DNA from: Pelovirga terrestris
Lineage (GTDB): Bacteria; Desulfobacterota; Desulfuromonadia; Desulfuromonadales; Geopsychrobacteraceae
Length of the DNA stretch: 64,000 nucleotides
Assembly (NCBI RefSeq): GCF_014773365.1
Contig: NZ_JACWUN010000001.1
Span: 62,001-126,000 of the forward strand
Direction: 5' to 3'
The notes beneath the pieces were generated by a model that saw only the letters and a list, made by a program, of their open reading frames with translations, ran no database searches and had not been told where the DNA came from. The position numbers and the translations under genes are program-made. Below, one piece after another: positions 9,002-63,014 of the stretch (positions are counted from its first letter, which is position 1; each line of letters begins with the position of its first letter).

Positions 9002-9682
9002 ATGAGTTTGAACTTATCTAACGTTTTGAAACAATGTCATTTGTTCGCTGGAACCTCTGAAGCGGATCGGCAAATGCTCCTGTCCATCAGCAAGACGCGA
9101 GAGTACAACCGTGGTGAACTGCTATTTGAAGAGGGACAGGTCGCTGATGGTTTTTATGTGGTGGTCCGTGGCAAGGTAAAGGTTTTCAAGCTTTCGCCCG
9201 ACGGTCGGGAAAGAATTCTTCACGTTATTCATCCGGGTAGTAGTTTTGCTGACGCTGCCATCTTTGGTGATGGGGCCTTTCCAGCGTTTGCCACGTGTAT
9301 TGATCTGTCTTCCCTGCTATTTTTCCCGAAGGATCAATTTTTAGGGCTGCTCCACCGGCATCCGCAATTAGCAATCAACATGATTGCCGGGTTGTCCCGT
9401 TTTTTACGTAATTTTGCTACCCAGATTGAAGATCTGACCTTTCGGGAGGTTCCTGCGCGTCTGGCGCGTTTTTTAATCAGTGAATGCGACAAAGACAGCG
9501 GGCAAGTCAATCTGGCCGTCTCCAAGGCGCAACTGGCATCTAATCTGGGAACCACCAGTGAAACCCTGTCGCGTACGTTACGCAAACTTGCTGATGACGG
9601 GTTGATCACTGTCCAGGGGCGCACGATCAGCTTGATTGACACGAATCGGTTACACGATCTGGTAGATGCTGAGCGATGTTAA
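9002..9682 (+). CDS. Crp/Fnr-family transcription regulator
   Basis: 226 residues from the ATG at 9002; an in-frame TTG at 8978 has no better ribosome site. The N-terminal two thirds is a cyclic-nucleotide-binding-like beta roll (GELLFEEGQVADGFYVVVRGKVKVF, then HVIHPGSSFADAAIF). The C-terminus is a winged helix-turn-helix (SKAQLASNLGTTSETLSRTLRKLADDGLI). The N-terminal cysteine cluster that holds the iron-sulfur centre of Fnr is absent; only one Cys (LKQCHLF) is present, so it is closer to Crp/DNR types. It is divergent from the Fn3 gene with an 86-base gap, so it may control that gene; this is inference only. Confidence 0.85.
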   Translation: MSLNLSNVLKQCHLFAGTSEADRQMLLSISKTREYNRGELLFEEGQVADGFYVVVRGKVKVFKLSPDGRERILHVIHPGSSFADAAIFGDGAFPAFATCIDLSSLLFFPKDQFLGLLHRHPQLAINMIAGLSRFLRNFATQIEDLTFREVPARLARFLISECDKDSGQVNLAVSKAQLASNLGTTSETLSRTLRKLADDGLITVQGRTISLIDTNRLHDLVDAERC

Positions 9683-9692
9683 ACAGGTGTAA

Positions 9693-9828
9693 CTATTCAG
9701 CTCTATCCTTGTACCGGGCCTTTGAATCCTATGTCAAGGGACGCTTTTCGTCATCCCTGACCGCTTTTTGTCGCCGTCCATGGCGACAAATACCCTTGCC
9801 ACAGGATCCCCGACCCGGTACTGAACAG
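9693..9828 (+). repeat. Dispersed hairpin element, copy 1
   Basis: One of three copies of the same element (others at 42081-42180 and 62808-62944). The shared core begins TATGTCAAGGGACGC and runs to CCCTTGCCACAGGA. It holds a short CAAGGG/CCCTTG outer pair and a strong inner hairpin (TTGTCGCC with GGCGACAA, 9768-9789). This copy also has longer outer arms: CTATTCAG and GTACCGGG on the left, CCCGGTAC and TGAACAG on the right. It holds no credible coding frame. It resembles a small non-autonomous mobile element or a structured RNA. Confidence 0.8.
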
Positions 9829-10127
9829 ATACAAACAGGTTAACAAAATGTCGGTGGTGCTGAAGCGTTTTTGCCCTATTAAATCCTCTCCCAACATCCT
9901 TTTCTGATGATGAGCATGTAACATGCAGTAATAATTCATTTTCATGTTGAGACTTGCGCTCGACCCTGCTATTGTTCCAGTGTTGCTTTCTGTTAATTAG
10001 TTTCAAGCCTGAGGCACTGGTTGGACACGGTAAGAGTTGCCAGGTCGAAAACCGCTTGAATCAAGGTTTGCTTCATCATTAAGACGTTGCTTGATGTCTG
10101 TTGCTATCGGGTAAAGGAGAAGGACCT
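9829..10127. other. Intergenic stretch with one short dyad
   Basis: No gene is apparent between the hairpin element and the response regulator. The only local feature is a 13-base near-perfect inverted repeat at 9913-9925 (GCATGT-A-ACATGC) that could be a small operator. A clear Shine-Dalgarno sequence (AAAGGAGA) stands just before the regulator start at 10128. Confidence 0.4.
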
Positions 10128-26857: not shown

Positions 26858-28468
26858 GTGAGTTTCACTTCTTTGAGCAGTGGCAGTCCAGTCGCCAGGC
26901 ATTTATCGAAGCATAAATCAACCGGTATATCTGATTTGCTGCGCACTATTTCCATGCCATTGTGGCTGATTAAATCAGACGGTCTGGTGCATCTGGTCGC
27001 GGATCAGGTCCCCAGGACAAAAGCAGAAGATAGTTTCGGCATGGTGCCTGCTTGTTTGCTGGATTCTTTAGGTAGCCGCTCTTTCTGTCATGATCACGGT
27101 GTGCAATACGCTTATGTCGGTGGCTCCATGGCCAAGGGGATCAGCTCGGTTGCTATGGTCAAGGCGTTGGGCGAGGCCGGCATGCTGGGGTTCTTTGGTT
27201 CTGCGGGTCTCTCCTTTGATCAGGTGGAGGCGGCGATCGATGAGCTCCAGCAGCATCGACCCGATATCCCTTTTGGCGTCAATCTGATTCACAGCCCGAC
27301 CGAGCCGGAACTGGAAAAAGCCTTGGTCGAGCTGTATCTGCGTCGAGGTATTCACCTGATTGAGGCCTCGGCCTTTTTAGGACTAACCTTGCCGCTGGTG
27401 CGCTATCGCACCCATGGTATTCACCGCGACGAACACGGCTGTGTCGTTGCCCCCAACCGCATCATTGCCAAGGTTTCGCGCGAAGAGGTGGCAGCGCGTT
27501 TTTTTGAGCCACCAGCGGAAAAGTTGCTCCAGCAATTAGTGGCTGCCGGTGATTTGACCAAAGAGCAGGCACATCTCGCTGGACACATTCCCATGGCTCA
27601 GGATGTTACGGCTGAAGCTGACTCCGGTGGACATACCGATAACCGTCCGGCCCTGTCGTTGTTTCCGACTCTGCTTGCCCAAAAAGACCAGATGCAGCAG
27701 CATTATGATTATCCTCAGCCATTACGCATCGGTCTGGGTGGCGGTATTGCAACCCCGGCGTCTGCGGCAGCTGCTTTTGCCATGGGTGCCGACTATCTGG
27801 TCACCGGGACGGTGAATCAGGCTTGTGTCGAGTCCGGAACCTGCGATGCCGTGCGGCAGATGCTGGCTGAAACCCGGCAGGCGGATATCACTATGGCACC
27901 TTCGGGTGATATGTTTGAGATGGGGGTCAAGGTTCAGGTGGTCAAGCGTGGCACCATGTTTGCCATCCGTGCCCACAAACTTTATGAGCTCTACCGTGCT
28001 TATGAGAGTATCGACGCCTTGCCGACTGCCGAACGGGAGAAGATTGAAAAGACCTTTTTTAAAGTGCCTCTTGACACGGTCTGGCAACAGACCCAAAGTT
28101 ACTTTCAGGTCCGTGATCCACGCCAGGTTGAAAAAGCTCTGAACGATCCAAAATACAAGATGGCACTGGTTTTTCGCTGGTATTTGGGACAAACGCCGGT
28201 GTGGGCCAACCAGGGGATTGCCGATCGGAAAATTGATTATCAGATCTGGTGTGGCCCAGCCATGGGAGCTTTTAACGAGTGGGTCAAGGGCAGCTTTTTA
28301 GAGCCACCCGCCGCCCGCAAGGTTGTGCCGGTCGCTTACAATATCCTTTTTGGCGCTGCGGTGTTGCAGCGTGTACGCTTACTTAAGCAGCAGTGGGGCA
28401 CGTATCGTGTCGATCCGAAGATCGCCACGCCATTGCCGCTTGAGCAGATCAAGGAGTTTCTCTGTTGA
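26858..28468 (+). CDS. pfaD: PUFA synthase enoyl reductase PfaD
   Basis: 536 residues, the usual PfaD size. It has a flavin-dependent TIM-barrel of the nitropropane-dioxygenase type, with GGSMAKGISSVAMVKALGEAGMLGFFGSAGLS near the start, PFGVNLIHSPTEPELE, GLGGGIATPASAAAAFAMGADYLVTGTVNQ and APSGDMFEMGVKVQVVKRGTMF. In PUFA synthases this protein reduces the trans-2-enoyl intermediate on the carrier domains of PfaA. The start is GTG with AGGAG ahead of it. In many pfa clusters pfaD is last; here it is first. Confidence 0.95.
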   Translation: MSFTSLSSGSPVARHLSKHKSTGISDLLRTISMPLWLIKSDGLVHLVADQVPRTKAEDSFGMVPACLLDSLGSRSFCHDHGVQYAYVGGSMAKGISSVAMVKALGEAGMLGFFGSAGLSFDQVEAAIDELQQHRPDIPFGVNLIHSPTEPELEKALVELYLRRGIHLIEASAFLGLTLPLVRYRTHGIHRDEHGCVVAPNRIIAKVSREEVAARFFEPPAEKLLQQLVAAGDLTKEQAHLAGHIPMAQDVTAEADSGGHTDNRPALSLFPTLLAQKDQMQQHYDYPQPLRIGLGGGIATPASAAAAFAMGADYLVTGTVNQACVESGTCDAVRQMLAETRQADITMAPSGDMFEMGVKVQVVKRGTMFAIRAHKLYELYRAYESIDALPTAEREKIEKTFFKVPLDTVWQQTQSYFQVRDPRQVEKALNDPKYKMALVFRWYLGQTPVWANQGIADRKIDYQIWCGPAMGAFNEWVKGSFLEPPAARKVVPVAYNILFGAAVLQRVRLLKQQWGTYRVDPKIATPLPLEQIKEFLC

Positions 28469-31400
28469 AAACCGATCAGCAAACGACAGATTCGACGATG
28501 ACACCGCTGGCGATTGTCGGCATTGGTAGTATGTTCCCTGACGCCGAGAATTCACAGCAGTTCTGGACCAATATCAAAACCGGCGTCGACAGTATCCGCG
28601 AGGTTCCTGCAAGTCACTGGCGCGCTGACGACTATTTTGATGCCGATCCCAAAACCAGGGATAAGGTCTACGCTAAACTGGGTGGTTTTTTATCGCCGGT
28701 CCGTTTTAACCCGATGGATTACGGGATACTGCCTAACGCTCTGGAGGCGATCGATACGTCGCAGCTGTTGGGCTTGCTGGCGGTGGAACAAGCGCTTCAG
28801 GATGCCGGTTACGGCGCCGGTAAAGAATATCATCGCGAACGAGTCAGTGTTATCCTCGGAGTGACCGGTACCCTTGAACTGGTTGTGCCCCTCGGCGCCC
28901 GTTTGGGGTACCCGCGCTGGAAGCAGGCGCTGGCTGAAGCTGGGGTGGATGAGGAGACAGCCGCTGATGTCATGGACCGGATCTCCGATTCCTATGTGCC
29001 CTGGCAGGAAAATTCCTTTCCCGGGTTGCTCGGTAATGTGGTGGCCGGACGGATCAGTAAACATTTCAATTTTGGCGGCACCAATTGCGTGGTTGATGCC
29101 GCTTGCGGCAGTTCGTTAAGCGCCCTGAATCTTGCTGCTCTGGAACTCGCCGCCGGACGCTCCGACATGGTGATCACCGGCGGGGTTGATACCTTCAATG
29201 ACATTTTCATGTACACCTGCTTCAGTAAAACACCGGCTCTGTCACCTTCGGGCCATGCCAAACCTTATTCTGACAACGCCGACGGCACCACTCTGGGTGA
29301 GGGATTGGGGGTGGTGGTTATCAAACGCCTGGCGGATGCCGAGCGCGATGGCGACCGTATCTATGCGGTGATCAAGGGGATCGGTGCTTCCAGTGACGGT
29401 CGCGGCTCTGCCATCTATGAGCCGAGCGCCCAGGGTCAGACCAGGGCCCTGCTGCGCGCCTATCAACAAGCCCAGGTAAGCCCTGCTACGATCGAGCTGG
29501 TTGAAGGGCATGGTACCGGCACCAAGGTAGGTGACGCCATTGAAGTCAATGCCCTGCGCCAGGTTTACGGAACAGCGCAACAGCCCTGGTGCGCCCTGGG
29601 TTCCATCAAATCTCAGATCGGCCATACCAAGGCGGCTGCCGGAGCTGCCGGACTGATTAAGGCGGCTCTGGCCCTCTATCACAAGGTGCTGCCGCCAACT
29701 ATCAAGGTGCAACAACCCGCCTCCGTGTTGCTTGAAAAGGATTCTCCCTTTTACGTCAATACCGAGTGTCGTCCCTGGTTTCCGGCCGGCAATCACCCCC
29801 GTCGGGCTGCGGTCAGCGCTCTGGGTTTTGGTGGCAGTAATTTCCACTGTCTGGTGGAAGAATACACAGAAGAAAAAAACGAGGTTGACTGGACCGGAGA
29901 TGTTCAGATTTTGCCGTTTTCTGCTGATGACAAGGCTACGTTGAAACATCAGCTGCAGGCGTTTCCTCATGATGCGCAGTGGCAGCAACTGCGTCTACTG
30001 GTTGCTCAAAGGCGCCTTGATTTTGATCGCCAGGCCCGGTGTCGACTGGTGATGGTGATTGAACGTGGCACCTTAAGTGAACCATTGGATATCGGTCGGC
30101 GAATTGATGCTGCTGTTGCCGTGCTCGATCAACCAAAAGAAGGGTGGCATGAAACCCCGGATGGAATCTATTTGTCGACCGACGAGCCAGCCGACAATAT
30201 CGCTTTTCTCTATCCTGGACAGGGGGCACAGTACCCGGGCATGCTCAAAACCCTGGCCTTACAGTTTCCCGAATTTCAGCGGGTGGTCAACGAAGCTGAT
30301 CAGGTTTTTGCGGAAAAGGCCCAGGTTCCGCGCCGGACCTTGACCGATCTGATCTATCCCCGTCCGGTTTATTCATCCGAACAACAGGAAGCAGCAGTCA
30401 CCGCTTTGCGCGCCACCGAAGTCGCTCAGCCGGTCCTCGGTGCGATGGAGTGTGCCGGTACTGCCGTGCTGCAACGTTTTGGTTTATCACCTCAAGCGGC
30501 TGCCGGGCACAGTTATGGTGAGCTGGTCGCTCTATGCCATGCCGGGGTTTTTAGTGCCGCCGATCTTCACCGTCTGTCACGCCTGCGTGGTGAATTGATG
30601 GCAGCCAAAGGCTCTGAGCGTGGCACTATGCTGGCAGTGTCGGCACCACTTGATGCTATCAGTAAATTTATCCAGAGTGAACATCTCGACCTGGTACTGG
30701 CCAACCGTAATACCCCGGAGCAAGGCGTGTTATCGGGCTCCCATGCTGAAATCGAGCGCGCTCGGGCGGCACTAGCCGGACAAGGTGTTTCCTGTGCCCC
30801 CTTGAGTGTAGCGGCGGCCTTCCACAGTCCTCTGGTGGCAACTGCGGCCCAGCCTTTTGCCCAGGCGCTGGAAACAACGACCCTGACCGCGCCGGCTTTC
30901 CCGGTCTATGCCAACACCAGTGGCGATCGCTACCCCCAGGACGTCGGCGAGCTCAGGTCGCTGCTGGCGCGACAACTTGCCAGTCCCGTTGATTTTGTCA
31001 CAGAGATCGAAGCCATGTATCGCGATGGCCTGCGAATCTTTGTTGAAGTGGGCCCGGGGGCGCGTTTAAGTGGCATGGTCAGAACGATCCTCAAGGGCAA
31101 GGATATTCAAACCCTGGCCCTCGATTCTTCTAACGGCAAACGCTGTGCCCTGGTTGATCTGGCCCGCCTGTTGGCAAAATTAGCCGCCCTTGGGGTGACT
31201 GTTGCCTTGACCTCATGGGATGAAAATGTCCTTGAGCAGGCAGCGCAACAACCGGTCAGGAAGAAAGGGTTAACCGTTACCCTGACCGGTGCCAACCATT
31301 TCAACAAACCGCAACCGCGTCCACCGCGGCAGCAGAAAATGGCCGGAAAAAGTGTCATTCCATCATCTCAGCCACAAGAACAGCAAGAGGAAATACCCAT

Positions 31401-34400
31401 GCCCGATCAACAAGTCCGGCCTCCAGTAACCACGACGTCCCAAGCTAGGCCGGCGCCTGTCCCGGATAGCGGATTGTCGGCAGCGTTGCGCCTGAGCCAG
31501 CAGAATATTGAGGCCTTGCAGTCGATCTCGCAGCAGACGGCCAAACTCCATCAGCAGTTTCTCGAGGGACAGCAGGCCGCAACCCGATCCTTCATGCAGT
31601 TGGTTGAGCAGCAGCGACAACTGCTCGGCGGAAGGGCCATTACTCCCGCTGTGCCGGTGGCCATTGCTGAGGCTGTTCCCTCAATAGCTACGCCGCCGGT
31701 TGCTGAACAACCAGCACCGTCTGAATTGACCCCTCCTCCTGTCACCGCCGACCCTGTAGCAGATCCTTCGCCGATTTCCGGTACACCCGCAAGCCATATT
31801 ACCAGCGCGTTGCTCGCTGTCATCGCCGAGAAGACCGGTTATCCGGTGGAGATGCTGGAGCTGGGGATGTCGCTGGATGCCGATCTGGGGATCGACTCAA
31901 TCAAGCGGGTCGAGATCCTCTCGGCCCTGCAGGAACGTCTGCCGGAACTGCCGGCGGTCAAGCCGGAAGACCTGGGCGTATTACAGACCCTGGGGCAGAT
32001 TGTTGACCACCTGCAGCAAGGTGCTGCAGGGACGGTCACCGGCCCGGGAAGCAGCGGAGCGGCAGCAGATGCGGGCGCTGATACGGGTAAGGTGACGTCG
32101 GCGTTGCTCGCTGTCATCGCCGAGAAGACCGGTTATCCGGTGGAGATGCTGGAACTGGGGATGTCGCTGGATGCCGATTTGGGGATCGACTCAATCAAGC
32201 GGGTCGAGATCCTCTCGGCCCTGCAAGAACGTCTGCCGGAACTGCCGGCGGTCAAGCCGGAAGACCTGGGCGTATTACAGACCTTGGGGCAGATTGTTGA
32301 GCACTTGCAGCAAGGAACAGCAGGGATGGCAAAGACCGCTGGTATGACAGTGTCAACAGGGGTGGCTGGTCCGCAAGTGACCACCGCGCTGCTTGCTGTC
32401 ATCGCCGAGAAGACCGGTTATCCGGTGGAGATGCTGGAACTGGGGATGTCGCTGGATGCCGATCTGGGGATCGACTCAATCAAGCGGGTCGAAATCCTCT
32501 CGGCCCTGCAGGAGCGTCTGCCCGCATTGCCGGTGGTTAAACCGGAGCATTTGGGCACCTTGCAGACCATCGATCAGATTGTCGATTTTCTCAGCAGTGT
32601 CTCCGGCTCGGAAAAAGCGGCTTTAACCCTTCCAGACCGGGAGTCCGAGCCGTTGCCGATCATCAAGCGGCAGGAGGTTTGCCTGGCCAGTTTGCCTAAG
32701 AAAAGACCAGTTAAAAGCTTTTCTTTTGGCGCCGGAGCCCAGGTCTGGATCACTGATGATGGCTCAGCCCTGATTGATGCCCTGGCGACAGCCTTAACCC
32801 GCCATAACCTGATTGCACGAAAGGTCAAGCTGACTGACATTACCACCCTGGATGCTCCGGCAAACCTGTGTGGCCTGCTGATCGTTGCACCCCTTAAAGG
32901 CTGTAATGATCACTTTATCGCCGAGAGTTTTCAGTTGTTGCAGTTGGCCGCTCCCCAGTTGCGCAAGCAGGGAACTGGTCAGGGAGCTTTTTTTGCTACC
33001 ATTTCGCGCCTTAACGGCAGCTTTGGTCTGCCCGCACGTTCCGGCTTTGGCGACCCCCTCTCTGGGGGATTGGCCGGTTTGAGTAAAACGGCGGCTCTGG
33101 AGTGGCCTGAAGTTCACTGCAAGGCTCTGGACCTGGGCTTGGGGATGGAGGTTGTTCCGGCAGCGACGACTCTGGTCGAAGAAATCTTTACGACAACCCC
33201 CCTTGAGATTGGGGTGTCGTCAACCGGTTTGACTACTTTGGAGCTGGTGTCTGAGGACGTTACTGTTGATACCCGGGAGTTGGCGCTGGAAGAAGGGGAC
33301 CTGGTTGTGGTGAGCGGCGGTGCTCGCGGTGTTACCGCGGCTGTTTCCGTCGCTCTGGCACGTAAATATCGTCCCACCCTGGCATTGCTGGGACGCAGCC
33401 CGCTCCCTGCGGATGAGCCGGATTGGCTGAAGGGCCTGGATACGGAGGCAGAAATAAAAAAGGCGGTGTTGGCTCATACTGATAACCCTCCGGCGCCGAA
33501 AGAATTGCAGCAACAGTATGACCAGATTCTGGCTGGACGTGAGATTCGTTCTACCCTTGACGATATTCTCAAGGCGGGCGCCACACCTTTGTATCTACCA
33601 GTCGATTTACGCGATGAGCAGGCGGTAACTGCTACCATAAACAACCTGCAAGAGCAGTATGGCGCGGTTAAAGGTGTGATCCATGGTGCCGGGGTGCTGG
33701 CAGATAAGTTGATTGTGGATAAGAGCCGTGAACAGTTTGCTGCGGTCTATGATACCAAGGTCAGAGGATGTCGCCATCTGCTGGCGGCCATTAACGTCGA
33801 CCAGCTCGCATTTCTGGTCATGTTTTCTTCATCAACCGCTCGCTTCGGTCGTATTGGCCAGGCCGATTATGCTATTGCCAATGAAGTATTGAACAAAATA
33901 GCCCAGCAATTTGCCCAGAGTCATCCCGAAACCAGGGTGTTATCCATGAATTGGGGCCCTTGGGATGGCGGTATGGTGAACGCTGCGTTGAAAAAAATGT
34001 TTGCGCGCGAAGGGATCGAGGTGATCGATCTGCAGGCTGGTGCGGCTTATCTGCTCAAGGAATTGACTGCGACAGACAAGACCGTTGAACTGGTCATTGC
34101 CGGAGGTCATGCCCAGGATGCGGTTACTGAAGAGCCTGAGCCGGCGCAGAACCTGTACCTTTCAAGCGCTTTTGATCTCGATCTGAACATCGATCAATTT
34201 CCCTTGCTCAAATCCCATGTTATTGACGGTAAAGCGGTTGTGCCCGCGGCATTGATGGTTGAATGGCTGGCTCATGCCGCGGTGCATAATCATCCGGGGC
34301 TTAAATTCCAAGGGTTTAATGATTTCAGGGTGCTTAAGGGAATTATTCTTGAAGCGGGGCAGACCTACAATCTGCAAGCGATGACCGGCAAGGCGATCAA

Positions 34401-35022
34401 GAGCGATGGTTTGCATGTGGTGCCGGTTGAGCTTTCAGGTCATGATGAACGGGGGCGCGCCGTCGCCCACGCCCGGGCCCGGGTGGTTCTTGCAGCCGGC
34501 TACAACCCTGCGCGTCAGGCCCGTTCAAGACTGGATCTGGAGACCTACGCGCAAGCGTCAGCCGGCATTTACGCTGACCAGAAGCTGTTTCATGGTGAAG
34601 CCTTCCAGGGATTGCGTGAGATTCTGGGTTGTTCGACACAAGGGATCAATGCCTTGGTGAGCCCGGCCCCGCAGCCGCAGCAATGGATTGAACAGCCTTT
34701 GCGCAACAGCTGGTTTGCCGACCCATTGGCCCTGGACAGTAGTTTTCAGATAATGATTTTGTGGAGTTTTGATCAGTATCAGGCTGGATCCCTGCCGGTT
34801 TTTGCCGGTCGTTACCGTCAGTATCGGGAGCGTTTTCCCGCTGACGGGGTGGAGGTTCGTGCCCGGATTATCAGCAACAGTCCACATCGTGCGACAGCGG
34901 ATATTGATTTTGTCGATCCGAACGATGGGCAACTGGTTGCGCGACTGGAAAATTATGAATGCGTTATCGATGCATCCCTTAATGCCACTTTTCAGCGCAA
35001 TAAACTCACAGGAGTTGCCTGA
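28465..35022 (+). CDS. pfaA: PUFA synthase subunit PfaA (KS-AT-ACPx3-KR-DH)
   Basis: 2185 residues. Ketosynthase (about 10-460) with active Cys214 in VDAACGSSL and the two His motifs EGHGTGTK and SQIGHTKAAAG. Acyltransferase (about 580-880) with Ser683 in AGHSYGE. A Pro/Gln-rich linker (about 960-1110). Three carrier domains with attachment Ser1145, Ser1243 and Ser1338 in LGIDSIKR. Ketoreductase (about 1590-1880; VVSGGARGVTAA, FSSSTARFGRIGQADYAIAN). A C-terminal dehydratase-like hotdog pair (about 1920-2180; LLKSHVIDGKAVVPAALMVEW). It starts at a TTG that overlaps the pfaD stop (TTGA), with AAGGAG ten bases ahead. Three carriers is fewer than the five or six of Shewanella PfaA. Confidence 0.95.
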   Translation: MKTDQQTTDSTMTPLAIVGIGSMFPDAENSQQFWTNIKTGVDSIREVPASHWRADDYFDADPKTRDKVYAKLGGFLSPVRFNPMDYGILPNALEAIDTSQLLGLLAVEQALQDAGYGAGKEYHRERVSVILGVTGTLELVVPLGARLGYPRWKQALAEAGVDEETAADVMDRISDSYVPWQENSFPGLLGNVVAGRISKHFNFGGTNCVVDAACGSSLSALNLAALELAAGRSDMVITGGVDTFNDIFMYTCFSKTPALSPSGHAKPYSDNADGTTLGEGLGVVVIKRLADAERDGDRIYAVIKGIGASSDGRGSAIYEPSAQGQTRALLRAYQQAQVSPATIELVEGHGTGTKVGDAIEVNALRQVYGTAQQPWCALGSIKSQIGHTKAAAGAAGLIKAALALYHKVLPPTIKVQQPASVLLEKDSPFYVNTECRPWFPAGNHPRRAAVSALGFGGSNFHCLVEEYTEEKNEVDWTGDVQILPFSADDKATLKHQLQAFPHDAQWQQLRLLVAQRRLDFDRQARCRLVMVIERGTLSEPLDIGRRIDAAVAVLDQPKEGWHETPDGIYLSTDEPADNIAFLYPGQGAQYPGMLKTLALQFPEFQRVVNEADQVFAEKAQVPRRTLTDLIYPRPVYSSEQQEAAVTALRATEVAQPVLGAMECAGTAVLQRFGLSPQAAAGHSYGELVALCHAGVFSAADLHRLSRLRGELMAAKGSERGTMLAVSAPLDAISKFIQSEHLDLVLANRNTPEQGVLSGSHAEIERARAALAGQGVSCAPLSVAAAFHSPLVATAAQPFAQALETTTLTAPAFPVYANTSGDRYPQDVGELRSLLARQLASPVDFVTEIEAMYRDGLRIFVEVGPGARLSGMVRTILKGKDIQTLALDSSNGKRCALVDLARLLAKLAALGVTVALTSWDENVLEQAAQQPVRKKGLTVTLTGANHFNKPQPRPPRQQKMAGKSVIPSSQPQEQQEEIPMPDQQVRPPVTTTSQARPAPVPDSGLSAALRLSQQNIEALQSISQQTAKLHQQFLEGQQAATRSFMQLVEQQRQLLGGRAITPAVPVAIAEAVPSIATPPVAEQPAPSELTPPPVTADPVADPSPISGTPASHITSALLAVIAEKTGYPVEMLELGMSLDADLGIDSIKRVEILSALQERLPELPAVKPEDLGVLQTLGQIVDHLQQGAAGTVTGPGSSGAAADAGADTGKVTSALLAVIAEKTGYPVEMLELGMSLDADLGIDSIKRVEILSALQERLPELPAVKPEDLGVLQTLGQIVEHLQQGTAGMAKTAGMTVSTGVAGPQVTTALLAVIAEKTGYPVEMLELGMSLDADLGIDSIKRVEILSALQERLPALPVVKPEHLGTLQTIDQIVDFLSSVSGSEKAALTLPDRESEPLPIIKRQEVCLASLPKKRPVKSFSFGAGAQVWITDDGSALIDALATALTRHNLIARKVKLTDITTLDAPANLCGLLIVAPLKGCNDHFIAESFQLLQLAAPQLRKQGTGQGAFFATISRLNGSFGLPARSGFGDPLSGGLAGLSKTAALEWPEVHCKALDLGLGMEVVPAATTLVEEIFTTTPLEIGVSSTGLTTLELVSEDVTVDTRELALEEGDLVVVSGGARGVTAAVSVALARKYRPTLALLGRSPLPADEPDWLKGLDTEAEIKKAVLAHTDNPPAPKELQQQYDQILAGREIRSTLDDILKAGATPLYLPVDLRDEQAVTATINNLQEQYGAVKGVIHGAGVLADKLIVDKSREQFAAVYDTKVRGCRHLLAAINVDQLAFLVMFSSSTARFGRIGQADYAIANEVLNKIAQQFAQSHPETRVLSMNWGPWDGGMVNAALKKMFAREGIEVIDLQAGAAYLLKELTATDKTVELVIAGGHAQDAVTEEPEPAQNLYLSSAFDLDLNIDQFPLLKSHVIDGKAVVPAALMVEWLAHAAVHNHPGLKFQGFNDFRVLKGIILEAGQTYNLQAMTGKAIKSDGLHVVPVELSGHDERGRAVAHARARVVLAAGYNPARQARSRLDLETYAQASAGIYADQKLFHGEAFQGLREILGCSTQGINALVSPAPQPQQWIEQPLRNSWFADPLALDSSFQIMILWSFDQYQAGSLPVFAGRYRQYRERFPADGVEVRARIISNSPHRATADIDFVDPNDGQLVARLENYECVIDASLNATFQRNKLTGVA
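31807..32600 (+). repeat. Three near-identical acyl-carrier-domain repeats inside pfaA
   Basis: The units at 31807-32021, 32101-32315 and 32386-32600 are each 215 bases. Units 1 and 2 are almost identical at the DNA level, including third codon positions; unit 3 is nearly the same for the first ~140 bases and then diverges. Spacers between the units are Gly/Ala/Thr-rich and unrelated. The DNA identity indicates recent duplication or gene conversion, so unit number may change by recombination. Confidence 0.92.
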
Positions 35023-35024
35023 TA

Positions 35025-38000
35025 ATGGCTTATGCCCAATCGGTTGCTGTTGTTGCCATGGGGGGGGAGTTTCCCGATGCAGCAACCCTTGATGATTACT
35101 GGGAACTGATTCTCAAAAAAAGAAACTGTGCGCGTCGCCCGCCCGCCGGACGCTGGCTGCTGCCGGTGGAAGAAATTTACCACCCTGAGGTTGGCGCAGC
35201 GGACCGGGTGTATTCGGACAAGGCCTGTTTTCTTGCTGATCCAGCAGTTTCATCGGATCTGCCTGGACTCAATATAGATGCCGGTTTTCTCCGTCAGCTT
35301 GATCCCATGTTCCGTCTGTTGCTCCGGGTCGGGCAGCAAACCTTGACCAGTGCCGGCACACCGTCGTTTGATCCGTCACGGGCCGGAGTCATCATCGGCA
35401 ATCTGGCGCTACCAAGTGAAACCTCCTCCGCTCTGGCCCGCCAACTGCTGGGTAAAGCCTTTGCTGAAAAGCTTACGGACCAGCCTTTGTCGGTTCATGA
35501 GGATCCAATCGTACCACAAAACCACCACGTTGCCGGATTGCCGGCTGCTGTTCTGGCCCGCGGCCTAGGCTTTGGCGGCACCTGTTTTACTCTTGACGCA
35601 GCCTGTGCTTCCTCCCTCTACGCGATCAAACTGGCGGTCGATGAACTGCTGTCCGGGCGCGCCGATCTGATGCTCGCCGGGGGCGTGTCGCGCCCGGACT
35701 CCCTTTATACCCAGATGGGTTTTTCCCAGCTGCGAGCCCTGTCGGCCAGCGGTCGTTGTGCGCCTTTTGACCGCTCCGGTAACGGGCTGGTGGTCGGGGA
35801 GGGGTGTGGCCTGCTATTACTCAAGCGTACCCGCGACGCGCAGCGTGATGGCGACCGGATCCTGGCGGTAATTCGTGGCATTGGACTTTCCAATGATCTG
35901 CAGGGTAATCTGCTGGCACCTTCGTCTGAAGGACAACTGCGGGCGATGCGTGCAGCTTATCGGCAGGCCGGTTGGCAGCCCAGTGATGTTGATCTGATCG
36001 AGTGCCATGCTACCGGTACACCGGTAGGAGATGCGGTTGAGTTTTCCAGTTTACAGCAGCTATGGGGCAACAGTGGTTGGCGTAGTGGCCAATGTGTTAT
36101 CGGTTCGGTTAAGGCCAACATCGGTCATCTGTTGACGGCCGCCGGTGCCGCAGCGTCCATCAAGACGATCCTTGCCTTGTCGCACCGGACATTGCCTCCA
36201 CAGACCCATTTTGAGCAACCGGCCGCCGGGGTTGATTTGGACCGGAGTCCGTTTCGGCTGCTTGGCCAGGCATGCCCCTGGCACCAGCGCCGTGACGAGG
36301 TGCCGCGTCGTGCAGCGGTCAGTGCCTTTGGTTTTGGCGGCATCAATGCTCATATGTTGCTTGAGGAATGGCAACCGGAGCGTGCAACCCGCAAGAAGGT
36401 GACCCTCCATCCATCCTTCTCGGCCCGTCAGACCCCGATTGCCGTGGTTGGACTGGCCGCTCACTACGGCCCCTGGTCTGAACTTCAGGGGTTGCGGCAG
36501 CGGTTTTTCGGTGTTGATGACAAGACCAAATCCGTTACTCCCAGCCATTGGTGGGGTGGCGGCGAGAGTCGTTGGCTTCAGCAGATTTTCCCGCAGGGGT
36601 TGCCGCAAGGGTTTTGCCTCGGGCAGATCGGTGCAGCTGCCGGTGAATTTCGCATTCCACCGAACGAGATAGCAGAAATGCTGCCGCGCCAGCTGCTGAT
36701 GCTGAAGGTTGCCGCCGCAGCCCTGCACAATGCCGATGCTGACCATGACGATCATCTGTTTACCGGGGTTTTTATCGGTTGTGGTCTGGACCACAATGCG
36801 ACCAACTTCAGTTTTCGCTGGGGACTGGCACAGCAGGCCCGGATCTGGGCCCAAGAGCTGGGCTTCAAATTAACTGAGGACGAACTGTCTGCCTGGATAG
36901 CCGGTTTGCGTGAAGCCGCCGGACCGGCACTGACGGCCAACCGTACCATGGGAGCGCTGGGAAGTGTTGTCGCCAGCCGGATTGCCCGGGAATTTGGTGT
37001 CGGCGGTCCGAGTTTTACCATTTCCAGTGAAGAAAATTCCAGCCTACGTGCCCTTGAGGTGGCTATCCATGCGTTACAGGAAGGCTCCATCAAACGCGCC
37101 CTGGTCGGTGCTGTAGATCTCGCCGCTGATCTGCGGGATGTGGTCTGTCGTCAGCAGCTGACCCCTTTTAGCGGCGCCGGCTACTCACGTCCTCTTGACC
37201 GGGAAAGTCAGGGTATCCAGCTTGGTGAAGGGGCGGGTGCACTGGTTCTTAAACGTCTGGAAGATGCCCGTCAGGATGGCGATCAAATCCATGCTGTTGT
37301 CAGCGGGATTGGTACCGCCATCGGCGGTGCTGCTGATCAGTTACTGCCGCTGGCCGATGTTTTGCGTAAAGCGGTGACCCAAGCGTGCAACAGTGCCGCT
37401 GTGAAACCTGCAGATATCGGTTACCTGGAAGTTGATGGCAGTGGTGATCCTGAGGCCGATCTCCTCGAGGCAGTGACGCTGTCCGAGGTGCTCGGCGGTG
37501 GTAACCGCAATAGTTCCTGCTGGCTTGGTAGTGTCAAGGCTGATATCGGTCATGCAGGTGGTGCTGCGGGGATGGCTGCGGTGATCAAGGCCGTTCTGTG
37601 TTTAAAACAACGACTGCTGCCGCCTGTTCGCAGCTTAACTGCGCTGCGCTCTGAATGGATAACCTCTCCACCCGTGTACCAGGTGGCTGATGCGCCCCAG
37701 TACTGGTTAACCAACCGCGTTGCAGGTGTGCGGCGTGCCATGGTTACCGCGTTGGGCAACGATGGCAGTTGTTCTGCCCTGATTGTCGAGGAGCATCAGG
37801 GCAACCTGCCCGCACCAGGTGTGGATCGCCCTTTAGGTGATTTGGCTGCCGGGTTGTTTGCTCTTAACGCCGATAGTTTGGCTGGTTTGGGCGCAAAGCT
37901 AACCGAGCTGAAACAGCTTGCGGCACAGTATCACGATGAATGCTGTGATCAACTGGCCCGACGCTGGTATCGCAACCACCCACCTCCCACTGATGTTTCA

Positions 38001-41000
38001 CTGTGTCTGACGCTGGTCATAGAAACGCCTGCCGAATTGAATGCCCAGCTTGACCAGGTGGCTCGCCACCTCGAACGTCTTGCCGTTGATAAATCCCTGA
38101 GGTTCGCTGATTTGTTATCTCCGGCACAACGTGAACGGGTATTTTTCAGCGCTGACCCCCTGGCGACGCAAGGGAAGATCGCCTTTATCTTTCCCGGATC
38201 CGGCAATCATTTTGCCGGGATGGGGCGCGATCTGGCAGCGCGGTGGCCGGAAGTCTATGGTGCCCAGGAAGCCGCCAATTCCTGTCTGGCCGATCAGTAT
38301 CAGCCCCATCTTTTCTGGAAGAGTGCTCTAAGTGATGCGCTATTGGAAGATCATAACGCCCTGGTTATTTCCCATGTATCCCTGTGTACTGCCCTCCACG
38401 ATCTGCTCAGCCGATTCGCCATCAGGCCCCAGATGGTCAGTGGTTACAGCCTTGGTGAATCTTCCGGGTTATTTTCAACCGGTGCCTGGCGCGAGCGTGA
38501 TGCCATGCTGCAGCGCCTTAAGGATTCACCGCTGTTTACCAGCGAGTTAGCGGGTGAATGTCACGCCGCCCGCCGGACCTGGGGATTGCCCCCCGGTCAG
38601 CAGGTTGACTGGTGTCTGGGAATTGTTAATGTTTCGGCTGATCAGGTCAAAAAGATTCTGGCCGGCAAAAAACAGGTATATTTGTTGATTGTCAACACCT
38701 ACAAAGAGTGTGTGATTGGCGGCCGGCGACGTCAGGTTGACCTGGCGGTTAAGGAACTGGGCTGTCATTTTATCCCCTTACAGGGGGTCACAACGGTTCA
38801 TTGTGAAGTAACCAGAGCGGTGGCGGACGCCTATCGTAACCTTCACCTGTTTGACGTCAGGGCACCGCGAGGTATCGATTTCTACAGCTGTGCTTTTGGC
38901 GGAAAATATCCCCTGACCACCACCAATGCCGCCGACGCGATTCTGGCCCAGGCTCTCGACACCATTGACTACCCACGAGTGATCGAACGTTTGTATGCTG
39001 ACGGCGCCAGAATCTTCCTTGAAGTTGGGCCTGGCTCGTCCTGTACGCGGATGATTTCCAGTATCCTCGGTGAGCGTCCTCATCTGGCCCGTTCTTTCTG
39101 TGTCGCGGGACAAGATGCGTCGGTGCAGTTTCTGCGCTTGTTGGGGCACTGCCTGGCTGAAGGGGTCAAGCTGGATCTGTCACCACTCTATCCAGCCGAC
39201 AAGGGCGAATTGCCCGTCAGTACTGGTCGAAGCCCACAGATTGTTACGACTACCGGGGGCGCTGCTTTTGCTCCAACGCTACCCGTTACAAATAATCCGG
39301 CTCCCCGGGTTGATCTGCCGCCGGCGGCAACGGCTAACGAAGCTCCTGGTTTACCCCCGGCACCACAGCAACTTCCTGTGGCCCTGCAAGCTGTAACCCA
39401 TGAGGACTCTGTGCCGGCCCAGTTAACCATCGGATTTCGTGATGTTCATACCGCTGGAGCAGCGGCCCATGCGGCCTTCCTGGAACTCTCTGCGGACCTT
39501 GAACGCTCCCTGGCTGAGCAGATTGGGTATCAGCAGGCTCTGTTACAACAAGCGGATGGCACCTTGTTTGACCTGGATCAGTCATTCTTCCATCAAGATC
39601 CCTATAGGGATCAATCTTCACCGCCGCTTGCTCAGGGGGCAGCACTGGAACCGGAGGGTAAGGGGGGTACCCCGGTTTTTGACCGCCAGCAGTGTATGGA
39701 ATTTGCGGTCGGATCGGTGGCCGGAATGCTTGGTCAGGAGTTTGCCGAGGTTGATACCTTCCCAACCCGGGTACGACTGCCCGATGAGCCGCTGATGTTG
39801 GTTGACCGGATTGTTGCCCTTGAAGGTGAGCCGCGCTCTATGTCCTGCGGACGGGTGATCACCGAACATGATGTGACGGCGGATCGCTGGTATCTTGATG
39901 GTGGTCGCATCCCCACCTGTGTCGCGGTCGAAGCCGGTCAGGCTGATTTGTTTCTGTCGGGTTATCTCGGGATCGATTTTATCACCAGAGGGCTGGCGGT
40001 TTATCGATTGCTCGATGCGGTGGTCACCTTTCATCGAGGGTTGCCGACGGTCGGTGAAACGATCCAGTATGATATTCATATCGATAGATTTTTTCGACAG
40101 GATCAGACCTACCTGTTCCGTTTTCATTTTGAGGCGACGGTCAATGGTGAACCATTACTGAGTATGCGTGATGGTTGTGCCGGATTTTTTAGTGCGGCAG
40201 AGTTGGCGGCCGGCAAGGGGATCGTCCATACCCGCCTTGATCTTCTGCCGCAACCGGGTCGCATGCCCGCTGATTGGCGGCAGTTGGTGCCAATGGCCGT
40301 TGAATCCTATAACGATACCCAGGTTGCGGCCCTTTATGCCGGTGATCTGGCCGGCTGTTTTGGCCCTTGTTTTGCAGATTTGCCCCTGAACAGGCCCTAT
40401 ACCCTGCCGGGCGGCAAATTGAAACTGGTTGATCGGGTGATTGTGCTTGACCCTGAAGGTGGACGCTACGGCCTCGGCCAGATTCGGGCGGAAATGGACA
40501 TTCAGCCCGATGCCTGGTTTTTGACCTGTCACTTTGTTGATGATCGGGTCATGCCGGGGACCTTGATGTACGAATGCTGTATGCACACCTTGCGGATCTA
40601 CCTGCTGCGCATGGGGTGGATCGGTGAGAACGGTGCCACCTGGTGTGAACCTGTACCCGGAGTACAAAGTGGTTTGAAGTGTCGCGGTCAAGTCATTGAA
40701 ACGACGAAAAAAGTCACCTATCAGGTGAGCATCAAGGAACTGGGTTACCGCCCGGAGCCCTATGCTATTGTCGATGCCCTGATGTTTGCCGATGACCATC
40801 CGATCGTCGAAATTCCTGATATGTCAGTACGCTTGAGTGGTCTTGATCGTTCCAGGGTTGAGGCCTTATGGCAGCGTCAGTCATCATCGGTAAATCATCA
40901 AGATCGCCAGGTTCTCTACGACCGTGAACGGATCACCGCCTTTGCCGTCGGCAACCCATCTGACGCATTTGGTGAACCCTACCGGATGTTTGATCAGGAA

Positions 41001-41987
41001 CGCAAAATTGCGCGTTTGCCCGGACCACCGTTCCAGTTTCTCGACCGGATTGTTGATGTTAAAGGTCAGCCGTGGAAGCTGGTTGAAGGAGCAGCTGTCG
41101 TAGCAGAATATGATGTGCCGCCGGATGCCTGGTACTTTACTGCCGGACGGCAACCGGAAATGCCCTTTAGTGTACTGCTTGAAATCGGCCTGCAACCCTG
41201 TGGCTGGCTTGCGGCCTATCTGGGCTCGGCCTTGACCAGCGATACCGATCTGTCATTCCGCAATCTGGATGGTCAGGCGACCCAGCACAAAGCGGTGACG
41301 CCGACTAGTGGCACTCTTACGATCAAGGTGGAGATTACCCGGATTGCCAGTAGTGGCGGGATGATCATCCAGGGATACACTTTTAATGTGCATGACAGTG
41401 ATGGTCCGATTTACACCGGCACCACTGTGTTCGGGTTCTTTTCAGCGGCCGCACTGGCTCAGCAGGTCGGCGTAAGGGGGGTAACAAGCTGGCAACCACC
41501 GCCAGAGCAGATCGGCCGAGCCGGAACCTTTGAGTATCCGGTCGCACCACCATTCCCCGATACGATGCTGCGCATGGTTGACACAATTGACCTGTATCTT
41601 CCCGACGGTGGCCCGCACCAACGAGGATTTATCCGTGGCAGCAAAATAGTCGATCCCGATGAATGGTTTTTTAAGGCGCATTTTTATCAGGATCCGGTCT
41701 GTCCCGGCTCACTTGGGCTTGAGTCTTTTCTGCAGTTGCTCAAGGTCGTCGCCGCTGAGCGCTGGGGCCTATCTGCCGACAGCCGCTTTGAAACCATGGC
41801 GCTTGGGGTGGACCATCGCTGGAATTACCGTGGCCAGATTATTCCGACCAATCAGCGCGTCGAGATCGAAGCGCTGATTACCGCGGTTGATGATCAGAAC
41901 AGAACCCTTAAGGCGGATGGTCTGTTGTCGGTGGATGGTAAAATCATCTATCAGATGAAAGATTTTGCCCTACGTCTTCACGGTTGA
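35025..41987 (+). CDS. pfaC: PUFA synthase PfaC with a built-in PfaB-type acyltransferase
   Basis: 2320 residues. Ketosynthase 1 (about 5-450) with Cys194 in LDAACASSL, and His in ECHATGTP and KANIGHLLTAAG. Chain-length-factor-like ketosynthase 2 (about 470-920), where the Cys position is Glu670 (SSEENSSL). Acyltransferase (about 1045-1360) with Ser1142 in GYSLGESSG, like PfaB. A Pro-rich linker (1380-1440). Four tandem hotdog domains follow (about 1550-2320): domains 2 and 4 keep the FabA-type catalytic His (His1836 in TCHFVDDRVMPG, His2219 in KAHFYQDPVCPG), domains 1 and 3 look like pseudo-domains. This is the dehydratase layout known from PfaC. It follows pfaA by two bases. No separate pfaB exists here. 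Confidence 0.93.
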   Translation: MAYAQSVAVVAMGGEFPDAATLDDYWELILKKRNCARRPPAGRWLLPVEEIYHPEVGAADRVYSDKACFLADPAVSSDLPGLNIDAGFLRQLDPMFRLLLRVGQQTLTSAGTPSFDPSRAGVIIGNLALPSETSSALARQLLGKAFAEKLTDQPLSVHEDPIVPQNHHVAGLPAAVLARGLGFGGTCFTLDAACASSLYAIKLAVDELLSGRADLMLAGGVSRPDSLYTQMGFSQLRALSASGRCAPFDRSGNGLVVGEGCGLLLLKRTRDAQRDGDRILAVIRGIGLSNDLQGNLLAPSSEGQLRAMRAAYRQAGWQPSDVDLIECHATGTPVGDAVEFSSLQQLWGNSGWRSGQCVIGSVKANIGHLLTAAGAAASIKTILALSHRTLPPQTHFEQPAAGVDLDRSPFRLLGQACPWHQRRDEVPRRAAVSAFGFGGINAHMLLEEWQPERATRKKVTLHPSFSARQTPIAVVGLAAHYGPWSELQGLRQRFFGVDDKTKSVTPSHWWGGGESRWLQQIFPQGLPQGFCLGQIGAAAGEFRIPPNEIAEMLPRQLLMLKVAAAALHNADADHDDHLFTGVFIGCGLDHNATNFSFRWGLAQQARIWAQELGFKLTEDELSAWIAGLREAAGPALTANRTMGALGSVVASRIAREFGVGGPSFTISSEENSSLRALEVAIHALQEGSIKRALVGAVDLAADLRDVVCRQQLTPFSGAGYSRPLDRESQGIQLGEGAGALVLKRLEDARQDGDQIHAVVSGIGTAIGGAADQLLPLADVLRKAVTQACNSAAVKPADIGYLEVDGSGDPEADLLEAVTLSEVLGGGNRNSSCWLGSVKADIGHAGGAAGMAAVIKAVLCLKQRLLPPVRSLTALRSEWITSPPVYQVADAPQYWLTNRVAGVRRAMVTALGNDGSCSALIVEEHQGNLPAPGVDRPLGDLAAGLFALNADSLAGLGAKLTELKQLAAQYHDECCDQLARRWYRNHPPPTDVSLCLTLVIETPAELNAQLDQVARHLERLAVDKSLRFADLLSPAQRERVFFSADPLATQGKIAFIFPGSGNHFAGMGRDLAARWPEVYGAQEAANSCLADQYQPHLFWKSALSDALLEDHNALVISHVSLCTALHDLLSRFAIRPQMVSGYSLGESSGLFSTGAWRERDAMLQRLKDSPLFTSELAGECHAARRTWGLPPGQQVDWCLGIVNVSADQVKKILAGKKQVYLLIVNTYKECVIGGRRRQVDLAVKELGCHFIPLQGVTTVHCEVTRAVADAYRNLHLFDVRAPRGIDFYSCAFGGKYPLTTTNAADAILAQALDTIDYPRVIERLYADGARIFLEVGPGSSCTRMISSILGERPHLARSFCVAGQDASVQFLRLLGHCLAEGVKLDLSPLYPADKGELPVSTGRSPQIVTTTGGAAFAPTLPVTNNPAPRVDLPPAATANEAPGLPPAPQQLPVALQAVTHEDSVPAQLTIGFRDVHTAGAAAHAAFLELSADLERSLAEQIGYQQALLQQADGTLFDLDQSFFHQDPYRDQSSPPLAQGAALEPEGKGGTPVFDRQQCMEFAVGSVAGMLGQEFAEVDTFPTRVRLPDEPLMLVDRIVALEGEPRSMSCGRVITEHDVTADRWYLDGGRIPTCVAVEAGQADLFLSGYLGIDFITRGLAVYRLLDAVVTFHRGLPTVGETIQYDIHIDRFFRQDQTYLFRFHFEATVNGEPLLSMRDGCAGFFSAAELAAGKGIVHTRLDLLPQPGRMPADWRQLVPMAVESYNDTQVAALYAGDLAGCFGPCFADLPLNRPYTLPGGKLKLVDRVIVLDPEGGRYGLGQIRAEMDIQPDAWFLTCHFVDDRVMPGTLMYECCMHTLRIYLLRMGWIGENGATWCEPVPGVQSGLKCRGQVIETTKKVTYQVSIKELGYRPEPYAIVDALMFADDHPIVEIPDMSVRLSGLDRSRVEALWQRQSSSVNHQDRQVLYDRERITAFAVGNPSDAFGEPYRMFDQERKIARLPGPPFQFLDRIVDVKGQPWKLVEGAAVVAEYDVPPDAWYFTAGRQPEMPFSVLLEIGLQPCGWLAAYLGSALTSDTDLSFRNLDGQATQHKAVTPTSGTLTIKVEITRIASSGGMIIQGYTFNVHDSDGPIYTGTTVFGFFSAAALAQQVGVRGVTSWQPPPEQIGRAGTFEYPVAPPFPDTMLRMVDTIDLYLPDGGPHQRGFIRGSKIVDPDEWFFKAHFYQDPVCPGSLGLESFLQLLKVVAAERWGLSADSRFETMALGVDHRWNYRGQIIPTNQRVEIEALITAVDDQNRTLKADGLLSVDGKIIYQMKDFALRLHG

Positions 41988-42080
41988 TGGCTGCTGAACG
42001 GCTGGTGCTTCACCTGCCGGGTAAATTATGTTACAAGATGCCCTGGTATTTGATAGGTTTGAAGTTTCGCTAATGCACCG

Positions 42081-42180
42081 GATCTTTGGATTCTATGTCA
42101 AGGGACGCTTTTCGTCATCCCTGACCGCTTGTTGTCGCCGTCCCTGGCGACAGACACCCTTGTCACAGGAACCCCGATCC
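42081..42180 (+). repeat. Dispersed hairpin element, copy 2, ahead of oleA
   Basis: The same core as copies 1 and 3 (TCTATGTCAAGGGACGC ... CCCTTGTCACAGGA) with inner hairpin TTGTCGCC/GGCGACA at 42132-42152. It fills much of the 276-base gap between pfaC and oleA, which is the only sizeable gap within the pfa-ole run. Frames through it that join oleA are not conserved protein. Confidence 0.8.
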
Positions 42181-42263
42181 AGCACAAGGCCATAGCTGAA
42201 CAACATTCATTAGACCCACTACTTGAAGCGGGGCAGTTTAAAAACAATGAAGTTCATTTATCA

Positions 42264-62724: not shown

Positions 62725-62807
62725 GGTCGGTTAGAGTTAATTCATCGGTTAACTTCTTTGCCTGAAAACACCACAGTCAGATCAAATTAATGCTATATTG
62801 ATAGTAT

Positions 62808-62944
62808 CTATTCAGCACCTGATCTTCGGTTTCTATGTCAAGGGACGCTTTTCGTCATCCCTGGCCGCTAGTTGTCACCATGGACGGCGACAAACACCCT
62901 TGCCACAGGATCCAAAGGCCCTGCGCAAGGACAGTGGTGAATAG
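62808..62944 (+). repeat. Dispersed hairpin element, copy 3
   Basis: The third copy of the family (core 62833-62912; TCTATGTCAAGGGACGC ... CCCTTGCCACAGGATCC). Outer arms CTATTC-ACC and GGT-GAATAG bound it. The inner hairpin (62872-62893) carries CCATGGACGG, the reverse complement of CCGTCCATGG in copy 1, so this segment is inverted relative to the other copies. It fills most of the 290-base gap between the symporter and the TamA-like gene. Confidence 0.8.
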
Positions 62945-63014
62945 TTACATTGTTTTTTTAGCCTGTTATTTGACGATGTTATTAATGATTGCGGTTCTGA
63001 GCTTTTGACACCTG

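What the first reader, a model, noticed from the sequence alone, without database searches (positions are those of the whole stretch)
9693..9828. Three-copy hairpin-rich element, all intergenic and in the same orientation
Copies at 9693-9828, 42081-42180 and 62808-62944 share an ~85-base core with a conserved inner hairpin and short outer pairs, and copies 1 and 3 add longer, unrelated outer arms that still pair. The outer arms pair in each copy although their sequences differ, which looks like selection for structure, not just descent. It matches no transposon or riboswitch family that I can name.
Basis: seen in the sequence. Interest (0 to 1): 0.65.

Follow-up and report, generated by a model that had tools for sequence, protein, structure and literature searches.

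The report
Mobile element carrying conserved paired RNA hairpins
The three hairpin-rich repeats are copies of a small hitchhiking transposon that is found across many Desulfuromonadales bacteria, and its middle part is a pair of hairpins whose shape has been kept by natural selection and whose loops look like the docking site of the global regulator CsrA.

Summary
The three window copies belong to a family with at least 40 full-length copies in this 3.1-Mb genome. It is a MITE: about 144 bp, ends GTAWCTRTTCAG/CTGAAYAGWTAC, with an 8-bp target-site duplication (56 copies; flank identity 82% at exactly 8 bp versus 33% shuffled) and empty sites in relatives. The same ends and 8-bp duplications bound 1.7-kb insertion sequences that encode a single-ORF IS66-family transposase (ISBst12 group) in other genomes of the class. 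Within the genus no homologue was found, so the MITE lacks a partner there.

The interior is conserved apart from mobility. A covariance model finds it in 44 of 277 class genomes (16 genera). Stems covary strongly. Outer arms differ completely between genera yet still pair. Three orthologous copies with no recognisable ends change about four times more slowly than their flanks. Wobble pairs favour the minus strand, and on that strand both loops read ANGGAX closed by C-G, the published high-affinity CsrA/RsmE site. That makes a mobile CsrA-binding RNA module the most interesting reading. It is unproven: there is no orientation bias relative to genes, and some carrier genomes lack a detected csrA.

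The parts
9681..9688 (.). left target-site duplication of copy 1, AAACAGGT
   Evidence: identical 8-mer at 9833-9840
9689..9832 (+). copy 1, complete MITE (subfamily A: long end, core, short end)
   Evidence: ends GTAACTATTCAG / CTGAACAGATAC with perfect 8-bp TSD; CM 110 bits
9689..9700 (+). left terminal inverted repeat GTAACTATTCAG (long end)
   Evidence: pattern found at over 100 sites in the genome and at the ends of full IS66-family insertion sequences
9711..9718 (+). left outer arm GTACCGGG, pairs with 9814-9821
9726..9740 (+). left inner arm ATCCTATGTCAAGGG
   Evidence: pairs with 9793-9807; covariation
9750..9761 (-). hairpin 1; minus-strand loop AGGGAU closed by C-G
   Evidence: loop GGA invariant in 62/62 aligned copies
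9767..9790 (-). hairpin 2; minus-strand loop AUGGAC closed by C-G
   Evidence: 9-bp stem; loop GGA in 61/62 copies
9793..9807 (+). right inner arm CCCTTGCCACAGGAT
9821..9832 (-). right terminal inverted repeat (short end) GTATCTGTTCAG
9833..9840 (.). right target-site duplication AAACAGGT
42076..42186 (+). copy 2: core and arms intact, terminal repeats decayed
   Evidence: CM 99 bits; no core at the orthologous site in G001, G002 or G003
62804..62948 (+). copy 3, subfamily B (short end, core, long end); hairpin 2 loop inverted
   Evidence: ends GTATCTATTCAG / GTGAATAGTTAC; CM 81 bits; no core at the orthologous site in G003

Best explanation
The feature is a MITE family. An ISBst12-group (single-ORF IS66-family) transposase recognises the GTAWCTRTTCAG ends in trans and inserts the element, making an 8-bp duplication of often A+T-rich intergenic target DNA. 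Shown: ends, duplication, empty sites, and cognate insertion sequences in related genomes. Inferred: mobilisation in trans, and present immobility in this genus, where no homologue of the transposase was found. The interior is a separate module. It is a long paired stem (CAAGGG...CCCTTG plus arms) enclosing two hairpins, and its structure is maintained by selection beyond transposition. Shown: covariation, and slow evolution of orthologous copies that lack recognisable ends. Most likely, though not shown, the module works as RNA transcribed from the minus strand, presenting two ANGGAX loops to CsrA/RsmA. I give about 0.55 to an RNA role of the minus strand and about 0.35 to CsrA as the partner. 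The stated confidence is for the MITE identity plus structural selection.
For: 8-bp TSD in 56 copies, with only width 8 clearly above background. Empty sites with a single 8-mer: L023/L155, L003/L199, L010/L208. Full insertion sequences with the same ends and perfect 8-bp TSDs, L126, L128, L131, L132, with an IS66 transposase (PF03050 158 bits, NF033517 288 bits). Covariation score 0.272 versus 0.098 shuffled and at most 0.09 slid; 16 of 25 pairs with double changes in the larger set. CM hits in 44 of 277 class genomes. Orthologous copies: 9/222 versus 116/720 substitutions, p = 7e-7, with a G-C to A-T compensatory change in L170/L221. Loop GGA 62/62 and 61/62. Mismatch polarity 24 A.C versus 6 G.T events on the + strand, p = 0.0014, i.e. 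G.U on the minus strand. N is the most variable loop position while A and GGA are nearly fixed.
Against: No L110-type transposase was found in G000-G003, so trans mobilisation cannot be tied to a resident enzyme. The only IS66 in the genome has different ends, GTAAGCG. Only three ortholog pairs support post-insertion selection, and 30 nt of each was ascertained by exact matching. Concerted evolution between copies could add to core similarity. No expression data. For CsrA: no orientation bias, and several carrier genomes have no detected csrA.
Confidence: 0.85

Rival explanations
1. A plain MITE whose interior is a passenger. The hairpins are alike across genera only because the family is young or spread horizontally, and pairing arms are a by-product of palindromic ends.
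For: Clear TSDs and lineage-specific insertions; related ends carry quite different interiors in G008 and G026; short forms without the core also have perfect TSDs.
Against: Stems have changed by double substitution across genera; orthologous copies with no recognisable ends evolve about four times more slowly than flanks; loop and hairpin stems vary less than the terminal repeats within the genome.
Confidence: 0.2
2. The core serves mobility as DNA: the hairpins extrude as a cruciform or on the lagging strand and bind the transposase or a host nucleoid protein, helping excision.
For: The core recurs with these ends in many genera; G.T pairs are also better tolerated than A.C in single-stranded DNA, so polarity alone does not prove RNA (general knowledge).
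Against: Full insertion sequences with the same ends, and the short 46-66 bp forms with perfect TSDs, show no sign of the core; copies without recognisable ends still keep the core.
Confidence: 0.2
3. REP-like intercistronic element: stable stem-loops between genes that protect upstream mRNA or tune operon expression, with no specific RNA-binding protein.
For: All 101 scored copies are intergenic; conserved copies lie between neighbouring genes, for example downstream of a DUF1302-like porin gene (gene names by inspection only).
Against: Does not explain the invariant A.GGA loops with free N and X positions; no orientation bias with respect to transcription; no RAYT-type association found near Y1 transposases.
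Confidence: 0.2

Closest known systems
ISBst12 group of the IS66 family (e.g. ISDge4 of Deinococcus geothermalis, PMC12898284)
   Same: Ends (ISDge4 GTAACTGCTCAGCA / GTGACTACTCAGCA), 8-bp direct repeat and single-ORF transposase match the insertion sequences found here with GTAACTATTCAG ends.
   Different: The window element is 144 bp, encodes nothing, and has a structured interior absent from the insertion sequences.
Chunjie MITE of Geobacter uraniireducens (Chen 2008, known here only through PMC10969869)
   Same: A high-copy, mostly intergenic MITE in the same broad lineage, with full, variable and end-less copies.
QMITE1/QMITE2 of Coxiella burnetii (PMC5896051)
   Same: MITEs whose copies give rise to small RNAs, with inter-strain conservation.
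   Different: CsrA is not mentioned in that paper's text; no cross-genus covarying core was described in the passages read; different organism.
Csr/Rsm decoy RNAs (RsmZ, CsrB) and CsrA/RsmE sites (PMC4005645)
   Same: ANGGAX hexaloop directly on a C-G-closed stem; five-nucleotide loops lacking N also occur in both.
   Different: Two sites per element, dispersed in tens of mobile copies rather than one sRNA gene; binding and expression untested.
REP/REPIN elements of RAYT transposases
   Same: Dispersed intergenic palindromes.
   Different: 8-bp duplications and a DDE (IS66) partner; no Y1 transposase linked to the ends.

Membership tests
MITE | short, non-coding, terminal inverted repeats, many copies | tested here: met
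   ~144 bp, 12-bp ends, at least 40 full copies
MITE | target-site duplication and empty sites | tested here: met
   8 bp; three empty sites
IS66 family, ISBst12 group (ends) | GTAA-type ends and 8-bp duplication | tested here: met
   compare ISDge4 in PMC12898284
IS66 family, ISBst12 group (ends) | autonomous element with the same ends and an IS66 transposase as single ORF | tested here: met
   L110, L126, L128, L131, L132 in other genomes
IS66 family, ISBst12 group (ends) | the transposase moves the MITE in trans | not testable with these tools
   needs a transposition assay; no homologue found in the own genus
REP/REPIN (RAYT) | linked Y1 transposase and no duplication | tested here: not met
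   8-bp TSD present; Y1 loci have no such ends
Rfam RNA family | score above a curated threshold | tested here: not met
   only two tRNAs in the window; nothing above a curated threshold in related copies
CsrA/RsmA binding RNA | A(N)GGAX loop directly on a C-G-closed stem | tested here: met
   minus strand, loop 1 62/62 and loop 2 61/62 with GGA, near-invariant closing pair; rule from PMC4005645
CsrA/RsmA binding RNA | csrA in the host genome | tested here: met
   G000:C4:25212-25370, E 1.9e-25
CsrA/RsmA binding RNA | element and csrA co-occur | tested here: inconclusive
   28 of 44 carriers have csrA, against 83 of 271 genomes overall; confounded by phylogeny and draft genomes
CsrA/RsmA binding RNA | transcription of the GGA strand and binding in vitro | not testable with these tools
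   no RNA data; no orientation bias in gene context

The most novel reading that the evidence does not exclude
An ISBst12-type MITE family has carried a pair of CsrA-binding hairpins through at least seven families of Desulfuromonadales, scattering tens of CsrA sites or decoys per genome. That would be a mobile route to rewire or titrate the Csr network in a lineage where, in Geobacter sulfurreducens, no CsrB/C-family sRNA has been characterised (PMC13407953).
Probability: 0.3. Interest if true: 0.85.

Novelty: new variant of a known kind. Interest (0 to 1): 0.62.

Why it matters
Bacterial MITE interiors are usually treated as debris. Here one interior is kept as a structure across genera, survives after the ends have decayed, and has loops that match a known regulator site. 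If binding is confirmed, transposition would be a direct source of new CsrA-controlled genes or decoys. At minimum it supplies a family with defined ends, a cognate transposase clade and a covariance model for annotating hundreds of intergenic repeats in Desulfuromonadales.

Tried and rejected
RAYT/REP origin: Y1 transposases exist but none is near such ends. The genome's own IS66 copy as partner: its end is GTAAGCG. Rfam families: none. Plasmid carriage: no match. Selected role in mRNA in one direction: 36 versus 25 tandem copies, so no clear bias. Orthology of the window copies: the copy 2 and copy 3 sites have no core in the relatives compared, so these look like lineage-specific insertions. 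The pair L187/L195 was left out of the substitution test because the copies paired up by the script were not orthologous. Loop variability from the MAG set was set aside for loop 1 because my search pattern fixed that half; own-genome copies were used instead. The first loop-finding script required GGA and was circular; the unbiased alignment replaced it. Supplementary alignments of the Geobacter and Pelobacter genome papers and the Chunjie paper were not available.

Full report
WHAT IS IN THE WINDOW. The three copies are real. Copy 1 is complete at 9689-9832, copy 3 at 62804-62948, and copy 2 keeps its core at 42076-42186 with decayed ends. A search of the own genome gave 40 scored places of high similarity, 64 matches in all. 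The terminal 12-mer GTAWCTRTTCAG occurs 107 times against once for the control pattern.

IT IS A MITE. In 56 copies delimited by the two ends, the eight bases before and after the element agree at 82%, against 33% for shuffled partners. Widths 4-7 and 9-12 stay close to background, and 21 copies are exact at width 8. Copy 1 has AAACAGGT on both sides. In relatives the same sites can be empty with one 8-mer: L023 versus L155, L003 versus L199, L010 versus L208. The copy 2 and copy 3 sites have no core in the same-genus relatives compared. None of 101 copies lies inside a gene.

THE PARTNER. Loci of IS66 transposases from 60 relatives were scanned for the ends. L110 (genome G008) has a perfect GTAACTATTCAG on both sides of a single-ORF transposase, the whole element being 1,723 bp. 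Homologues at 65-85% identity in other families of the order and class sit in 1.70-1.72 kb elements with the same ends and perfect 8-bp duplications, for example L126, L128, L131 and L132. The protein is IS66 by Pfam and NCBIfam. ISDge4, described as ISBst12 group, has ends GTAACTGCTCAGCA and GTGACTACTCAGCA and an 8-bp repeat (PMC12898284). No homologue was found in G000-G003, so the family looks orphaned there. The genome's single IS66 copy has unrelated GTAAGCG ends.

TWO SEPARABLE MODULES. The long and short ends occur in either order around the core, giving two subfamilies. Forms of 46-66 bp keep ends, and many keep duplications, without the hairpins. In G008 and G026 the same ends enclose other interiors. 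Conversely, cores without recognisable ends occur.

STRUCTURE UNDER SELECTION. Twenty cores from ten genomes show a covariation score of 0.272 against 0.098 shuffled, and at most 0.09 with slid partners. RNAalifold finds 31 pairs, 18 with double changes. With a model built from them, 44 of 277 genomes of the class carry the core, in 16 genera. In the enlarged alignment 16 of 25 pairs have double changes; it is fitted to the model and includes some reverse-strand matches. Three orthologous end-less copies in the genus changed at 9/222 sites outside the stretch used to find them, against 116/720 in the flanks (p = 7e-7). In L170/L221 a G-C pair became A-T by two substitutions and a mismatch became a pair.

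WHICH STRAND, AND WHAT FOR. Imperfect pairs are A.C rather than G.T on the + strand (24 versus 6 events counted once per genus or genome, p = 0.0014), i.e. G.U on the minus strand. On that strand loop 1 contains GGA in 62 of 62 copies and loop 2 in 61 of 62, most of them in ANGGAX hexaloops, and the closing pair is C-G almost without exception. Among own-genome copies N is the most variable loop position (0.158) while A (0.013) and GGA (0.022) hardly vary; the terminal repeats vary more (0.081). This is the high-affinity rule published for CsrA/RsmE: an ANGGAX hexaloop directly on a C-G-closed stem, with five-base loops lacking N as weaker sites (PMC4005645). The genome has csrA. In G. sulfurreducens no CsrB/C sRNA has been characterised (PMC13407953).

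LIMITS. Against a CsrA role: gene orientation shows no clear bias, and of the 44 carriers 28 have a detected csrA, with several near-complete carriers lacking it, though such carriers often have few copies. Shared ancestry alone accounts for part of the loop constancy. Structural selection could also serve DNA-level functions. Expression and binding are untested.

CONCLUSION. Ordinary in kind, since it is a MITE with an identified transposase clade. Unusual in that its interior is a conserved, covarying, strand-polarised double hairpin with CsrA-type loops.

Noticed in passing
window 62860-62900 (copy 3): Hairpin 2 of copy 3 has its loop inverted (ATGGAC on the + strand), so its two GGA loops lie on opposite strands; looks like an inversion between the stem arms.
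   Followed up: no
L115, L118, L120, L122, L124 (G008) and L116 (G026): Elements of ~140 bp with the same GTAACTATTCAG ends but unrelated hairpin interiors; the G008 copies carry 7-8/8 matching 8-bp duplications, the G026 copy does not. A wider MITE superfamily on the same ends.
   Followed up: partly
L041-L046, L049, L050, L053: 46-66 bp derivatives; several share the junction TCCTTGCCACAGGA, either one ancestor that moved or repeated deletion between CCTTGC repeats.
   Followed up: no
L258 (G003, near the copy 2 site): An independent short element with a GTATCTGTTCAG end lies in the orthologous intergenic region where the window has copy 2.
   Followed up: no
L167 5990-6165 and L201 2636-2832: Two core copies about 146-167 bp apart in the same orientation, apparently tandem duplicates of the element.
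   Followed up: no
window 28465-41987: Two very long ORFs (2185 and 2320 aa) followed by a ketoacyl-ACP synthase III-like gene at 42252-43307, possibly a multidomain fatty acid or polyketide synthase locus.
   Followed up: no
L218 5018-5047: The core at the very end of a contig in a Planctomycetota MAG (M55B116) of the same isolate series as M55B183; probably binning contamination.
   Followed up: no
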